Source: a virus
Reading direction: 5' to 3' (one strand)
IMG/VR virus record: IMGVR_UViG_3300033429_000001
Coordinates: 1 to 64,000 of that record
DNA: 64,000 nucleotides
Shown: in pieces, positions 21,665 through 27,103 of the stretch
Position numbering within the stretch: position 1 is the first letter of the stretch
How the letters are laid out: each line of letters begins with the position of its first letter
Position numbers and translations under genes: made by a program
Notes under the pieces: model-generated
Databases searched by the model: none
What the model was told of the DNA's origin: nothing
The model's input: only the letters and a program-made list of their open reading frames with translations

Positions 21665-21714
21665 GTTTCGCTGAATGAAACAAAAACAAACAAAATTTGA
21701 TAATTTTAAGGTTA
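21665..21714 (-). promoter_or_regulatory. Conserved upstream element E2
   Basis: GTTTC-N7-GAAAC, an A-rich linker and the box TAATTTTAAGGTTA (21701-21714), 43 bases from the -35. It overlaps the stop codon of the ParB gene. Confidence 0.75.
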
Positions 21715-22587
21715 AACGATGTAGGCAAGAGCAGACTTGAGGGCCAGGGCTGCGGCGGTACACTGGTCGCGCTTGAAGTTCTTTCCCAGTGCATTCCAGG
21801 CTTCGGCGGCCTGTTGCCAAAAATTGATTTGATTATTAAGTACTTCGTGAGGCTTATTACCGCTTGTTGGCGGGATAGTTGTTGATGGTAGAGGCGGGTC
21901 TGCTGGAACTTCTGTTGGTTGGTCGTTGACGCTAATTTGACCGCCAAACAACGGGGCGTCAAACAAGGTGGCCTGGGCCTGCTGCTGGAACAATTCGCCG
22001 CAGACTCTACGGAACCATGCCGGGGTAGGGCTGGTGTTGTCTCGAAGCTTGCGGATGGCTAACATTTGGAAGTTGGAGTCAAGGTCGGCTTGGGAAATGA
22101 TTTGAGCGTAGCCTAGACCAATGTCGCCGGTTCTAACTAAGTCTTGAAGGTCATCACGAAGCTTCAGAAGCTTGAGACGAAATTCAACTCTTACGGAACT
22201 GACACCGGCTTGCTTGGAACACTTTTTAGCGTCCCACCCGTAAAGGCTAATCCGGCTGGCGTAAGCGTTGGCCTCGTCGATGGGGTCGAGGTCGTCGCGG
22301 CTGACATTTTCGGTGAGCATAACGGCGCTGGCTTCTTCATCGTTGAGGCTAACGACGATACACGGAACCTCTGACCAGTTCAGGAGTTCAATGGCTCGTG
22401 TACGACGCTCGCCGGCAACTATCTGGTACATTTCCGTGCTGTCTATATGGCGCACGGTAATCGGCTGAATTAGGCCATTCTCGCTGATACTGTTAGCCAG
22501 TTCTTGCAGGGCCTTTGGGTCAAAGCGAGTGCGGTCATTGTTGCCGGGTACTATGAGGGTTGTGTCAATCATTTTGATGTTGGACAT
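21712..22587 (-). CDS. parB: ParB-family DNA-binding protein
   Basis: 291 residues. The N-terminal ParB nuclease-like/CTPase domain has ALQELANSISENGLIQPITV and the signature AGERRTRA (residues about 59-66). A KorB/ParB-type HTH follows (ASRISLYGWDAKKCSKQAGVSSVRVEFRLKLLKL). The C-terminal 90 residues are unrelated. No ParA is visible, so it may be a transcription factor instead of a partition protein. Confidence 0.85.
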   Translation of the reverse strand: MSNIKMIDTTLIVPGNNDRTRFDPKALQELANSISENGLIQPITVRHIDSTEMYQIVAGERRTRAIELLNWSEVPCIVVSLNDEEASAVMLTENVSRDDLDPIDEANAYASRISLYGWDAKKCSKQAGVSSVRVEFRLKLLKLRDDLQDLVRTGDIGLGYAQIISQADLDSNFQMLAIRKLRDNTSPTPAWFRRVCGELFQQQAQATLFDAPLFGGQISVNDQPTEVPADPPLPSTTIPPTSGNKPHEVLNNQINFWQQAAEAWNALGKNFKRDQCTAAALALKSALAYIV

Positions 22588-22928: not shown

Positions 22929-23438
22929 ATGGCCAGTAAAGAGGCTCTAATGGAACTGAGGCGGTCTCTGATCGCTGCCCTTCTATCTGCTGACCCGAGA
23001 ATTACGCAACGGCAGATATTGACCGCATTGGAGAGAAAGGGACTATTTAACCCAGATTCGGGGAATCCCTATTCTGTGGGCACCATCAACACGGACATCA
23101 AGGTCATAAAAGTGCAATGGCGCGAGCGGGCAGGGATAGATGCAGAGGGCTGGTTGAGCGAGGTTTTGGCCAAACTTGACGAATTGGAAAAAAAGGGCTG
23201 GACTACGGGAAAGCCTGATTTGGTACTGAAGTGTATTCAGGAGCGCAATAAATTACTGGGATTGTACTCCCCCTCCAGGCAAGAAATCACCGGTGCCGGT
23301 GGCGGCCCGATAAAGACAGAGGATGCAACCCTTACCGACGAAGAGCGAATTAATAGAATTGCAGCCATATTTGACCGGGCAAGAGCTAAACGAGACAGGC
23401 AAGCTGACACACAACAAGAAAAGTTGCCAGGCGAATAA
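22929..23438 (+). CDS. terS: Terminase small subunit
   Basis: 169 residues; CAGGAAC precedes the ATG. An N-terminal HTH (ITQRQILTALERKG...YSVGTINTDIKVIK) is followed by a coiled region (LSEVLAKLDELEKKGW) and the LGLYSPSRQEITGAGGGPI motif common in small terminases. It recognises phage DNA and hands it to TerL. The large subunit lies 2.1 kb downstream. Confidence 0.8.
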   Translation: MASKEALMELRRSLIAALLSADPRITQRQILTALERKGLFNPDSGNPYSVGTINTDIKVIKVQWRERAGIDAEGWLSEVLAKLDELEKKGWTTGKPDLVLKCIQERNKLLGLYSPSRQEITGAGGGPIKTEDATLTDEERINRIAAIFDRARAKRDRQADTQQEKLPGE

Positions 23439-23458: not shown

Positions 23459-23538
23459 GTTCGTGAGTGGTATCAAAATTGTAAAAAACCGTTTTGGGGA
23501 GTGCAGGCCACTCGCGAACACCCAAGGCGGTTTTTTTT
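23459..23538 (+). terminator. Terminator with competing upstream arm (attenuator candidate)
   Basis: Nested terminator: AAAAAACCG (23483-23491) with CGGTTTTTT (23528-23536), GGG with CCC inside, GAGTG/CACTC at the centre, then further T residues. The upstream arm GTTCGTGAGTGG (23459-23470) is complementary over 11 of 12 bases, plus one G-U, to CCACTCGCGAAC (23508-23519), which would break the central hairpin. It lies between terS and 23568, so terminase expression may be attenuated. Confidence 0.65.
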
Positions 23539-23567: not shown

Positions 23568-24191
23568 ATGGAAACAAAAGAAGATATGGCAAAGCAGAGC
23601 AAAATGACGAAGGGAAAAATTACCATTGACGTGCGTGACTGGCAAAAAGAATTTGCCGAGATAGAGCCGGATTTAACCGGCGATGACCCGATAATTGACC
23701 TTGCCCTGACAGGATTAAAACCACAGCAAGCGGGCAGGATGATAACCATCGCCGGAGAGCGTGGTGATTTAAAAGACTTTCCGGGTTCAAAGCTTTTGCT
23801 GATGGTCGGGGGAGCTAATTTCTTTAGTAGTCACGTGGCGCGGGCCAAGCGAGAAATTACGCTGAAGAACGGCAAGACCTTTAGCGGTCGGGCCTACATC
23901 GCCCCGGCTCGTGAGGTGGCGGGAGAGGATGAGGAGGATCAGTCTGATAATGATACCCATCTACAACATGCTGCCTCATCCCTTCCTGCCTCAAATTGGC
24001 TTGATGAGAAAGTAGTCAGCACAATCGACCCGGCTACTTTTGACCGGGCCGTCAGGTATCTTTTCAACCAAGTGACGGGTAATATCTGGAAGCGTTTTTT
24101 ACACATTGCCGAACACAAGCCGGGTGAAGTGGAACGGATAGCCGGCGAGTTGAAAGATAGGATAGATGAGATGGTAGAGCGGTTGAGTTAG
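23568..24191 (+). CDS. Hypothetical protein between terminase genes
   Basis: 207 residues from ATG 23568 (AGGCGAAG upstream; ATG 23586 is the alternative). The frame is open through the terminator, but the start must lie after it. The middle contains SKLLLMVGGANFFSSHVARAKREITLKNGKTF and the C-terminus is helical. No family recognised. Its last codons overlap the first hairpin of the array. Confidence 0.65.
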   Translation: METKEDMAKQSKMTKGKITIDVRDWQKEFAEIEPDLTGDDPIIDLALTGLKPQQAGRMITIAGERGDLKDFPGSKLLLMVGGANFFSSHVARAKREITLKNGKTFSGRAYIAPAREVAGEDEEDQSDNDTHLQHAASSLPASNWLDEKVVSTIDPATFDRAVRYLFNQVTGNIWKRFLHIAEHKPGEVERIAGELKDRIDEMVERLS

Positions 24192-24700
24192 CCAGCCGGC
24201 GCGTAATACCCAAGCATCTTGTGCTACCAATCGCAACCGGTGGGGCGGCCACATGCCGCGTGATACCCAAACTTCATGTGCCGCCCCACCTTAAAAGCTT
24301 ACTGAGGGCCAAATCCTAAGTGATGCCCAGTCCAACGGTGCCCTTGACAAAATCCGAGGTTGAGCCAGGTTGAACGTGATACCCACGATAATTGTGTTCA
24401 ACCCCGGCTTTTGGAGAGAAGCCAGTAGCATAGTGATACCCATGAAACGTGTGCTTCTCTCCCAAATCAAGGCAATTGGTCTTGACCAGATTAGCGGTGA
24501 TACCCACCTAGACAGTGAAAGGACAAAAATAATGAACCAAAGTGAATGTGATACCCAGAATCAATGTGTTCAAATTGAAGGCAACAACGGAGAGGGCCAG
24601 GAATCCTGTGATACCCAGTTAATGGACGTCCCCTCCGACGATAACGGGACGGGCGTCCATAAAAGTCATGATACCCACTCCCCATGTGACACCCGTCCCG
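24181..24700. repeat. Tandem array of nine hairpins with a conserved 30-nt loop
   Basis: Conserved (G/A)TGATACCC cores start at 24203 (GTAATACCC), 24260, 24320 (GTGATGCCC), 24376, 24433, 24497, 24548, 24608 and 24668. Each lies in a loop of exactly 30 nt: C-A-R/N-N7, then GTGATACCCA, then N8-GT (GAC at unit 8), closed by C-G. The stems differ completely but pair: 11/11 bp in unit 2, 10/10 in unit 5, 9/10 in unit 8, 12/13 in unit 9, 8 in unit 4, 5-7 in units 1, 3 and 7; unit 6 is imperfect. Units 7-9 lie inside the next gene. It is not a CRISPR array: here the loop is constant and the stems vary. Confidence 0.85.
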
Positions 24701-25461
24701 ACCCAAAGCCCCGCAAGCATCCCCACCTATGGCAAGCCTATCTATGGTGGTACGAGTTGATGGAAATGCGCAAGCGTCACAACTCGCGTATTTCCTCAAT
24801 CGAAAATGGCAAGAGCAATCTTGACGCGGGATTTGAACGGGAAATGATAGCGATGCTTCAGCTTGACATCCTGGTTGACCCGAAGAATAAGACCCAGCGA
24901 GCTATGTCTGCCAAGCAGATAATGGTGAATTATGGCGAGGCTGTTGGGCCAATATGGGACTGGTGTTTGGCCCATAAGGGAATGGGGGAAAGCCTGACTG
25001 CCCAACTATTGGCCCAGATAGACGACATCAACAATTCCCCATCGGTGTCCAGTCTGTGGAGGTTTGCCGGGTTCAGTATTGACGGGGGGAAGGCAGAGAA
25101 AAATCATAAAGGGGTCAAGTCGCCCTTTAACCACAAACTCAAGGGTATCTGTTTCAATATTGCCGATCAATTCATCCGGCAGCAAACGCCGTACTATGTC
25201 GATATTTATTATGCCGAGAAACAACGCCAGCGAGAATTATATCCCGAACCAGTTTGTCGGGGCTGTGGAGAGTTGGCAGTACAGAAACGGAAAAAGGTTA
25301 GAGGCAAAATGGTGATGACCTGGGGCTGTCCCGAGAATGGCAAGCACGTTGTAAATTATACCGATGCCCACCTGCATATTAGAGGGTGGCGTAAGATGAT
25401 AAAGGAATTTCTTAAGGACTTGTGGGTAGCGTGGCGCAGGATTGAGGGTCAGATAGAATGA
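24532..25461 (+). CDS. HhH protein resembling the C-terminal domain of IS110 transposases
   Basis: 309 residues from ATG 24532 (AAAGGA upstream); an open frame back to 24370 lies within the hairpin array. The first 60 residues are low-complexity because hairpins 7-9 are in frame (recurring CDTQ/HDTH). GPIWDWCLAHKGMGESLTAQLLAQIDDINNSPSVSSLWRFAGF is a helix-hairpin-helix as in the Transposase_20 domain, followed by SPFNHKLKG, PYYVDIY and AHLHIRGWRKMIKEFLKDLW. A zinc-binding CRGCG...WGC pair interrupts it. The RuvC-like DEDD half of IS110 enzymes is absent. The position between TerS and TerL suggests a packaging or DNA-recognition role. Confidence 0.65.
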   Translation: MNQSECDTQNQCVQIEGNNGEGQESCDTQLMDVPSDDNGTGVHKSHDTHSPCDTRPDPKPRKHPHLWQAYLWWYELMEMRKRHNSRISSIENGKSNLDAGFEREMIAMLQLDILVDPKNKTQRAMSAKQIMVNYGEAVGPIWDWCLAHKGMGESLTAQLLAQIDDINNSPSVSSLWRFAGFSIDGGKAEKNHKGVKSPFNHKLKGICFNIADQFIRQQTPYYVDIYYAEKQRQRELYPEPVCRGCGELAVQKRKKVRGKMVMTWGCPENGKHVVNYTDAHLHIRGWRKMIKEFLKDLWVAWRRIEGQIE

Positions 25462-25555: not shown

Positions 25556-27103
25556 ATGCAAATACCGACGAAGAGCGAATTGATAGAGTTGCAGCCGTAT
25601 CTGACGAAATCGCAACTGGAAGAAATAGACAAACTGGCGAATGAGATCGAGATACCGCTTTGGTATCCCAATCCTGACCACGAAGACGGCTCCCCGAATC
25701 CTCAGCGATTGGCCTATGAGAGCGAGGCTGACATCTTGGGGTATGGCGGTTCGGCGGGATCGGGCAAAACGGACCTACTCCTCGGCGTCGCTGCCACCCA
25801 GCAAACCAACTCCGTAATCTTCCGCCGCGTCTTTCCCAATCATCGAGGAAACATTGAGCGCAGCCGAGAGATATTTAACCCCACCGGTGTCCCTCATGGC
25901 AAAAACAGCTTCAATGAACAGTTTCACCGTTGGAAATTAGCAAGCGGTAAACAAGTAGAATTCGAAGCCTGCCAACACGAAAAGGACAAAAACAACCAAC
26001 GCGGACGCCCCCGAGATTTCTATGGCTTTGATGAGGCCACCGAATTCACCCGCTCTCAATTTGATTTTATCATCGGCTGGAATCGCTCGACAGACCCCAA
26101 CCAACGATGTCGAATCATTCTTACTTTTAATCCCCCCACCGACGAGGTCGGCTCCTGGGTGGTGGATTTCTTTTTACCCTGGATTTCCTACCTTTTCCCC
26201 AAAGACTTTGAGCATCCCCGCCCGGCCAGGCCGGGGGAGTTGCGATGGTATGCCACCGTCGAGGGACAAGAGACCGAATGCACAGACGGAACCCCATTTG
26301 AGCGTGATGGGCTTCTCGTCAAGCCCCTTAGCCGGACTTTCATCCCAGGCAAACTCAAAGACAATCCACATTTGATAAATACCAATTATGAGGCTATCCT
26401 TCAGTCACTGCCCGAGCCGCTACGTAGCCAGGTGCTACACGGCGATTTTGCGGCAGCCAAAGAGCGCGACCCCTGGCAGGTGATTCCCGTCGAATGGGTC
26501 AAGCTGGCTCAAAAGCGGTGGCTGGAAATGGAGAGGCCGGCGGTGCCTATTTCCGGTACGGGGGTTGATGTGGCCCGAGGAGGCCAGGACAAGACAACAA
26601 AATGCGATAGGTACGACAATTATTTTGATGAGGTCAAGGTATGGCCTGGGGTGGCCACCCCAGACGGTCCGACGGTGGCCGCGTTGGTCGAGGGCGAATT
26701 GGAGGGCGAACCTGCCTACATCAACATTGATGTAATCGGCGTTGGGTCGTCTGCCTATGACAGCTTGAAGCCAATGTATAAGCGGGTCAACCCGATCAAT
26801 GCCGGGGAGAGGTCAGACTACCGGGACCGCTCTGGCAAATACAAAATGAGGAATGTTCGGGCGGAATATTACTGGCGGATGCGGGAGGCGTTGGACCCGG
26901 ATCACGGGGAAGACCCGGCGCTGCCACCGGGTAACGAGGTGGTAGCAGATTTGTGTTCGGCTCGGTATAAGGTGACGACAGCGGGGATACAGATTGAGAG
27001 CAAGGAGGAGATTAAGGAGCGGATAGGCCGGAGTCCTGATGTTGGGGAGGCTATTTTGCTGGCGAATTATCCGGGGGAGCCGCAGGGGATATTCTTTGGA
27101 TAA
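25556..27103 (+). CDS. terL: Terminase large subunit
   Basis: 515 residues. Walker A GYGGSAGSGKT near residue 62; Walker B FYGFDEATEF near 155; coupling-region motif RIILTFNPP; C-terminal RNase H-like nuclease starting at VDVARGGQDKT with further acidic positions in NIDVIGVGSSAYDSL and SPDVGEAILLA. It translocates DNA into the prohead and cuts it. No clear ribosome site; the start is the first ATG of the frame. Confidence 0.95.
   Translation: MQIPTKSELIELQPYLTKSQLEEIDKLANEIEIPLWYPNPDHEDGSPNPQRLAYESEADILGYGGSAGSGKTDLLLGVAATQQTNSVIFRRVFPNHRGNIERSREIFNPTGVPHGKNSFNEQFHRWKLASGKQVEFEACQHEKDKNNQRGRPRDFYGFDEATEFTRSQFDFIIGWNRSTDPNQRCRIILTFNPPTDEVGSWVVDFFLPWISYLFPKDFEHPRPARPGELRWYATVEGQETECTDGTPFERDGLLVKPLSRTFIPGKLKDNPHLINTNYEAILQSLPEPLRSQVLHGDFAAAKERDPWQVIPVEWVKLAQKRWLEMERPAVPISGTGVDVARGGQDKTTKCDRYDNYFDEVKVWPGVATPDGPTVAALVEGELEGEPAYINIDVIGVGSSAYDSLKPMYKRVNPINAGERSDYRDRSGKYKMRNVRAEYYWRMREALDPDHGEDPALPPGNEVVADLCSARYKVTTAGIQIESKEEIKERIGRSPDVGEAILLANYPGEPQGIFFG

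What the first reader, a model, noticed from the sequence alone, without database searches (positions are those of the whole stretch)
24181..24700. Tandem array of nine hairpins with a constant 30-nt loop and freely covarying stems
Nine units spaced 51-64 bp share a loop of exactly 30 nt: C-A-R(mostly)-N7, GTGATACCCA (minor variants), N8, GT. The loops are closed by stems whose sequences are unrelated between units yet complementary (up to 11/11, 10/10 and 12/13 bp). Selection therefore acts on pairing and on the loop, the opposite of a CRISPR array. The array sits between the terminase genes and runs in frame into a coding region (the intervals inside the gene are 51, 60 and 60 bp, multiples of three; those outside are not). 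I know of no family with this design. Possibilities: a packaging (pac/cos) recognition array, a single-strand DNA hairpin array, or a multivalent RNA bound by the neighbouring HhH protein.
Basis: seen in the sequence. Interest (0 to 1): 0.95.

Follow-up and report, generated by a model that had tools for sequence, protein, structure and literature searches.

The report
Phage TIGR-Tas guide RNA array
The nine hairpins are a stem-loop array of dual-spacer guide RNAs for the neighbouring Nop-domain protein TasA, that is, a phage TIGR-Tas system of a kind first described in 2025, with the unusual feature that the last guides lie inside the reading frame of the TasA gene itself.

Summary
Nine units with a constant 30-nt loop have stems that pair within their own unit far better than by chance and covary. 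A model built from them finds independent arrays in other phages. It is not an unknown design: it matches the 'stem-loop array' class of TIGR-Tas (Faure et al. 2025, PMC12045711). The loop reads CCA (box C), 9-nt spacer A, UG (box D), AUAC, CCA, 9-nt spacer B, UG, closed by a variable stem. The adjacent ORF is a nuclease-less Tas protein (TasA); its best solved relatives by sequence and fold are TasR and TasH. The pac/cos and ssDNA readings are not supported; 'RNA bound by the neighbouring protein' was right.

Three points go beyond the published main text. (1) The last guides are translated as an N-terminal extension of TasA, as in several unrelated phages. (2) A conserved gene of unknown function precedes TasA. 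(3) In 13 near-identical cultured mycobacteriophages stems and boxes hardly change (8%) while spacers are replaced (60%), which makes spacer turnover and targets testable in the laboratory. No target was found.

The parts
24185..24230 (+). Unit 1 (loop 24193-24222; loop core TAATACCCA); 5' arm overlaps the stop of the upstream gene
24242..24287 (+). Unit 2 (loop 24250-24279), 11/11 bp stem
24302..24347 (+). Unit 3 (loop 24310-24339), 7/7 bp stem
24358..24403 (+). Unit 4 (loop 24366-24395), 14/16 bp stem
24415..24460 (+). Unit 5 (loop 24423-24452), 13/14 bp stem
24479..24524 (+). Unit 6 (loop 24487-24516), weak stem; its 3' arm holds the AGGA that precedes the tasA start
24530..24575 (+). Unit 7 (loop 24538-24567), inside the tasA reading frame
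24590..24635 (+). Unit 8 (loop 24598-24627), inside the tasA reading frame
24650..24695 (+). Unit 9 (loop 24658-24687), inside the tasA reading frame; 12/13 bp stem
23932..23976 (+). Probable degenerate tenth unit inside the upstream gene (low confidence)
   Evidence: E 0.57; unit in the homologous gene of L014
24532..25461 (+). tasA: nuclease-less Nop-domain Tas protein, 309 aa; residues 1-54 encoded by units 7-9, conserved part from RPDPKPRK (24694)
23568..24191 (+). Conserved upstream gene of the cassette, 207 aa, function unknown; relative in L014
23424..23452 (+). Promoter-like site (TTGCCA-17-TATACT with TG) before the cassette; consensus match only
23459..23538 (+). Inverted repeat 23459-23470/23508-23519 followed by T8: possible attenuator in the cassette leader
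25556..27103 (+). Large terminase gene (neighbour, not part of the system)

Best explanation
A phage-borne TIGR-Tas system of the stem-loop, TasA type. SHOWN here: tandem hairpins with box C (CCA) and box D (UG) anchors and two 9-nt variable spacers per unit, next to a Nop-domain protein whose best solved relatives are Tas proteins. INFERRED from published relatives: upstream gene, array and tasA are transcribed together; a symmetric TasA dimer holds each hairpin loop (loop boxes on one protomer, stem-closing boxes on the other) and the transcript is cut between hairpins by a host RNase; spacers A and B pair with opposite strands of an ~18-bp DNA target, expected to read spacer A followed by the reverse complement of spacer B. 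Having no nuclease, TasA probably occupies and bends the target (blocking transcription or replication of a competing element, or regulating a gene) rather than cutting it. Because units 7-9 lie in the tasA reading frame and the likely ribosome-binding site of tasA lies in unit 6, cutting guides out of the transcript should destroy or silence the tasA message, which would be negative feedback (inference, untested). The confidence given is for the identity; for the blocking role about 0.5, for the feedback about 0.25.
For: Protein: phmmer E 1.9e-23 to 9mty (331 aa, the length the paper gives for TasR) and 1e-4 to TasH; all 11 Foldseek hits with E<=0.001 are TasR/TasH, IS110-family recombinases come next. 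Array: the defining statements of Faure et al. fit one by one; the closing pair is C-G in 9/9 units here and 43/44 units of five phages, as expected if the box C/box D pair of the TasR structure is kept. The same arrays sit beside tasA relatives in unrelated phages. Spacers hypervariable and scaffold constant in 13 related phages, the signature of guides. In-frame embedding: chance of an open frame through the array 0.001 (window), 0.0115, 0.0085 and <0.0005 in three other loci, weaker in four more; intervals are multiples of 3 in 25/38 inside genes against 7/28 outside (Fisher p 0.001).
Against: No target found: own genome no better than mismatched spacer pairs, and 12 mycobacteriophage spacer pairs give no convincing target in 50,697 phage records. 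Transcription, processing and binding cannot be tested here. The structure model is of modest confidence (pLDDT 64, pTM 0.53, five sequences). In-frame spacing is not universal (L125 8/16, LonelyBoi 3/5) and in the A1 mycobacteriophages the array lies outside the gene. The interval counts were assembled by hand, and the units of one locus are not independent.
Confidence: 0.93

Rival explanations
1. Packaging (pac/cos) recognition array between the terminase genes, read as DNA by the terminase.
For: Position upstream of the large terminase gene here; tasA also lies upstream of a large-terminase gene in L124 (ORF read by eye) and in Microcystis phage Mvi-JY20 (as annotated).
Against: The array goes with tasA, not with the terminase: in L014, Gordonia and Mycobacterium phages it lies among replication, recombination or immunity genes. 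Boxes, spacer length and protein fit TIGR-Tas exactly. Stem covariation between units argues for pairing of a single strand.
Confidence: 0.03
2. Relic of an IS110-type transposon with bridge-RNA-like loops.
For: Weak Transposase_20 similarity (13.9 bits, below the cut-off); PHROG family called transposase; IS110-family recombinases are the next structural matches.
Against: No DEDD catalytic domain detected, many tandem units instead of one two-loop RNA, and Tas proteins match far better. A 43-nt direct repeat flanks the cassette but lies in two genes and is unlike known IS110 ends.
Confidence: 0.03
3. TIGR-TasA identity is right, but the guides regulate the phage's or host's own genes rather than act against competing elements.
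For: TasA has no nuclease; in temperate actinophages the cassette lies near repressor, immunity or excise genes; TasA-bound DNA bending was proposed to aid integrases (PMC12045711).
Against: No match of the spacer pairs to the phage's own genome beyond re-paired controls; spacers differ between near-identical A1 phages, which is unexpected for guides to conserved own sites.
Confidence: 0.3
4. The array is only 5' leader sequence and its open reading frame is accidental; TasA starts further downstream.
For: In A1 mycobacteriophages the array is entirely outside the gene; the extension is predicted to be disordered and is not conserved in sequence.
Against: No in-frame start codon between 24622 and 24694, and the sequence from 24694 on (RPDPKPRK..PHLWQ.YLWWYELMEMRKRH) is conserved with L014; open frames through the array in eight loci.
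Confidence: 0.1

Closest known systems
TIGR-TasA stem-loop array of the Peromyscus leucopus gut contig (Faure et al. 2025, PMC12045711)
   Same: Nuclease-less Nop-domain protein; tandem hairpins with variable palindromic stems; [quoted passage not shown]
   Different: There 13 units in three subarrays separated by ~450-nt intergenic stretches; here a constant 9-nt loop repeat and 30-nt loop, with units inside the tasA reading frame and probably one inside the upstream gene
Dual-repeat TIGR arrays (TasR, TasH, FpTasA; PMC12045711)
   Same: Split 9-nt spacers; loop repeat starting UG and ending CCA; homologous protein
   Different: Dual-repeat arrays have constant edge repeats and give 36-nt tigRNAs; here unit-specific stems replace the edge repeats
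IS110 transposases with bridge RNA
   Same: Nop-like RNA-binding domain; split guides in RNA loops
   Different: No DEDD catalytic domain detected here; many units in tandem; no transposon ends seen
Archaeal box C/D sRNP (Nop5)
   Same: Nop domain and guides anchored by box C/D (as compared in PMC12045711)
   Different: No k-turn or fibrillarin partner reported for TIGR; presumed DNA target instead of RNA

Membership tests
TIGR-Tas, stem-loop array class with TasA | Tas protein with a Nop domain | tested here: met
   phmmer to TasR 1.9e-23; Foldseek to 9mty 2e-9, prob 1.00
TIGR-Tas, stem-loop array class with TasA | No fused HNH or RuvC nuclease (TasA) | tested here: met
   No such domain in Pfam or PHROGs scans; residues 1-61 of the model are unstructured
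TIGR-Tas, stem-loop array class with TasA | Array of tandem units next to the tas gene | tested here: met
   Nine units directly upstream of and overlapping tasA
TIGR-Tas, stem-loop array class with TasA | Two spacers of 8-12 nt per unit between box C (CCA) and box D (UG) | tested here: met
   9-nt spacers; CCA 9/9 at both places; UG 8/9 in the loop and 8/9 at the 3' edge
TIGR-Tas, stem-loop array class with TasA | Variable but palindromic sequences in place of edge repeats | tested here: met
   Permutation 0/100,000; covariation score 0.778 vs 0.236 shuffled, 0.910 vs 0.217 in 44 units of five phages
TIGR-Tas, stem-loop array class with TasA | Units transcribed and processed into separate guide RNAs bound by Tas | not testable with these tools
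   Needs small-RNA sequencing of a pull-down
TIGR-Tas, stem-loop array class with TasA | Spacers direct binding to both strands of a DNA target (shown for TasR and TasH only) | tested here: inconclusive
   No target in own genome; no convincing target for 12 related-phage spacer pairs in 50,697 phage records
IS110 transposon | DEDD catalytic domain plus Transposase_20 domain above Pfam cut-off | tested here: not met
   Transposase_20 13.9 bits against cut-off 21.3; no DEDD domain
CRISPR array | Near-identical 25-36 nt direct repeats separated by unique spacers | tested here: not met
   Only a 9-10 nt core is constant between units; longer repeat families are partial unit matches at 60-80% identity
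Any Rfam 15 family | Match at or above the gathering score | tested here: not met
   None in the window; only a chance-level manA match on the other strand

The most novel reading that the evidence does not exclude
In this branch of TIGR-Tas the guide array is part of the effector's own coding sequence, so that each transcript is either translated into TasA or cut into guides; the spacers are rewritten in place within a constant hairpin scaffold by an unknown process; and a conserved upstream gene is a second component.
Probability: 0.3. Interest if true: 0.8.

Novelty: new variant of a known kind. Interest (0 to 1): 0.6.

Why it matters
TIGR-Tas is a recently found class of RNA-guided DNA-targeting systems whose natural targets, spacer origin and biological role are unknown; the describing paper says genuine targets are hard to find because most loci come from metagenomes. 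This locus and its relatives tie the stem-loop class to cultured, genetically tractable mycobacteriophages and Gordonia phages, in which near-identical genomes carry different spacers in the same scaffold. Spacer turnover and target choice can therefore be studied in the laboratory. The in-frame overlap of guides and effector, if it has a function, would be a compact way to couple guide and effector dosage.

Tried and rejected
Rfam: no family. Pattern scans of IMG/VR for two exact copies of the core gave mostly chance hits; only L010 and L021 (= L124) were real arrays. Self-targets in the 72.7-kb genome: best matches 13-15 of 18, the same as for mismatched spacer pairs in the published geometry; the opposite orientation summed to 141 against 137-139 in controls, too small a difference to build on. 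Targets of mycobacteriophage spacers among 50,697 phages: none in actinophages for 12 pairs in the published geometry or 3 pairs in the opposite one; the hits are chance-level matches to Vibrio and Salmonella phages. Such a BLAST search sees only near-exact, ungapped 18-nt targets. Relatives of this TasA in plasmids or in GTDB genomes: none found (the genome scans reach close relatives only). Homology of the upstream gene across all lineages: convincing only within lineages; between two of them E 0.005 at best with low probability. Large terminase of the window in the L014 record: no match, which the tool itself calls inconclusive. Supplementary tables of the TIGR paper could not be read, so it is not known whether these phages, or arrays inside genes, are listed there.

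Full report
THE OBSERVATION. The window is part of a 72,741-base IMG/VR virus record. Between 24185 and 24695 it carries nine units with a loop of exactly 30 nt and unit-specific stems. Re-pairing the 5' and 3' arms of different units shows that the complementarity belongs to each unit: summed score 69.0 against a mean of 27.4, 0 of 100,000 permutations reach it. Pair counts on the gap-free alignment give 84.7% paired cells and a covariation score of 0.778 against 0.236 in shuffles, and no slid register comes near. A covariance model of the nine units finds nothing else in the genome but a weak unit at 23932-23976 inside the upstream gene; L014, a relative, has a unit in the homologous gene too.

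WHAT IT IS. The ORF into which the array runs (24532-25461) matches by sequence the TIGR effector TasR (PDB 9mty, E 1.9e-23) and TasH (1e-4). A predicted structure (pLDDT 64) has as its 11 significant Foldseek hits only TasR and TasH complexes, followed by IS110-family recombinases. The paper that describes TIGR-Tas (PMC12045711) reports, besides dual-repeat arrays, 'tandem stem-loop arrays' with two 8-12 nt spacers flanked by box C (CCA) and box D (UG), variable palindromes in place of edge repeats, and sometimes an intervening sequence of conserved length and sequence. Each of these sequence features is met here: stem ending in C, then CA, 9-nt spacer A, UG-AUAC-CCA, 9-nt spacer B, U, then a stem beginning with G. 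The closing C-G pair, present in 9/9 units here and 43/44 units of five phages, fits the box C/box D pair of the TasR structure. No nuclease domain was detected, so the protein is a TasA.

RELATIVES. The model from the nine window units finds arrays next to tasA relatives in IMG/VR contigs L010, L014, L124 and L125, in Gordonia phages Morrissey and LonelyBoi and in Mycobacterium phage Rich, and reports nothing at E<=0.1 in six contigs that merely hold two chance copies of the core. tblastn finds tasA in 79-85 cultured phages, nearly all mycobacteriophages, annotated as hypothetical protein or transposase. In actinophages box D reads mostly CG, in the loop and at the stem edge alike, so the two change together, as the paper expects for a symmetric dimer.

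BEYOND THE PUBLISHED MAIN TEXT, 1: GUIDES INSIDE THE GENE. The TasA sequence conserved with L014 begins at RPDPKPRK (24694), where unit 9 ends; there is no in-frame start codon between 24622 and 24694, so at least unit 9 must be translated. The likely start (ATG 24532, AGGA upstream) includes units 7, 8 and 9. The frame is open through the array in eight loci; the chance of this in dinucleotide shuffles is 0.001 here, 0.0115 in L010, 0.0085 in L014, below 0.0005 in L125 (353 codons, 17 units), and weaker in four others. Loci in which the array lies outside the gene (A1 mycobacteriophages, prophiFSAT01-1, Peregrin) were not part of that test, so the embedding is recurrent, not universal. Intervals between units inside the gene are multiples of three in 25 of 38 cases, outside in 7 of 28 (Fisher p 0.001); L010 is the cleanest case (7 of 7 inside, 1 of 14 outside). 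Public annotation already includes such units in the coding regions of LonelyBoi gp46 and Rich gp50. The extension is predicted to be disordered. The main text of the TIGR paper places arrays upstream or downstream of the gene; its supplements could not be read. Whether the overlap has a function (competition between translation and guide maturation) is inference.

BEYOND, 2: A SECOND GENE. A gene of roughly 150-270 aa precedes array and tasA in the loci examined; in the cyanophage no relative was recognised. It is homologous within lineages (window/L014, E about 1e-26; actinophages, all phrog_4604; L124/L125, 5e-14) but only weakly or not at all between them. In the 12.7 kb held around L014, the window proteins with relatives are this one and TasA (plus an antisense reading of tasA), so the pair and the array behave as a cassette.

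BEYOND, 3: SPACERS REPLACED IN A FIXED SCAFFOLD. In 13 near-identical A1 mycobacteriophages aligned over the array upstream of tasA, stems and boxes differ by 8% pairwise while spacers differ by 60%. Units carry 9-11 different spacer pairs among the 13 phages; some pairs are shared and some are recombined (one spacer shared, the other not). This is what guides against changing targets would look like. How spacers are replaced is unknown.

FUNCTION. The best-supported mechanism is RNA-guided, cleavage-free binding of TasA to DNA sites specified by two half-guides. From the published 8-nt 3' overhangs I derive that a target should read spacer A followed by the reverse complement of spacer B. No such target was found in the phage's own genome or, for 12 spacer pairs of mycobacteriophages, in 50,697 phage records. 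The purpose (competition between mobile elements, superinfection control or own regulation) stays open.

VERDICT. Real and well supported: a somewhat different member of a class first described in 2025. The interest lies in the embedding of guides in the effector gene and in laboratory-tractable relatives with hypervariable spacers.

Noticed in passing
L017, L128-L131, L134-L141 (array upstream of tasA in 13 A1 mycobacteriophages): Spacers of stem-loop TIGR units differ 60% pairwise between near-identical phages while stems and boxes differ 8%; alleles are partly shared and recombined.
   Followed up: partly
L133 (Mycobacterium phage Cueylyss), 2501-2572: A close relative in which tasA is gone except for 72 bases matching the 3' end of the gene: a natural deletion for comparison.
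   Followed up: no
window 23333-23375 and 25563-25605: A 43-nt, 91% identical direct repeat flanks the whole cassette, one copy in the 3' part of the putative small terminase gene, the other at the 5' end of the large terminase gene: possible insertion footprint or packaging-related site.
   Followed up: no
window 23459-23538: 12-bp inverted repeat followed by T8 in the leader of the cassette, just after a promoter-like site; AAAAAACCG in its loop can pair with the CGGTTTTTT after it, so an attenuator is possible.
   Followed up: partly
window 21712-22587 (-): Looks by eye like a ParB-type protein (not searched); the TIGR paper reports ParB-like genes in operon with some tasA genes, but here it is on the opposite strand.
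   Followed up: no
L124 2400-3683; L016 5882-6316: tasA also lies a short way upstream of a large terminase gene in L124 (ORF read by eye) and in Microcystis phage Mvi-JY20 (as annotated).
   Followed up: partly
L132 1398-1548 and 2145-2481 (Gordonia phage LonelyBoi): tasA and its arrays sit next to the immunity repressor, Cro and excise genes, with six units in the N-terminal part of the annotated CDS gp46 and one more further inside it.
   Followed up: partly
L019 4539-4584 (Mycobacterium phage Rich): A further unit lies in the 3' end of the annotated tasA CDS gp50, so embedding is not limited to the 5' part.
   Followed up: no
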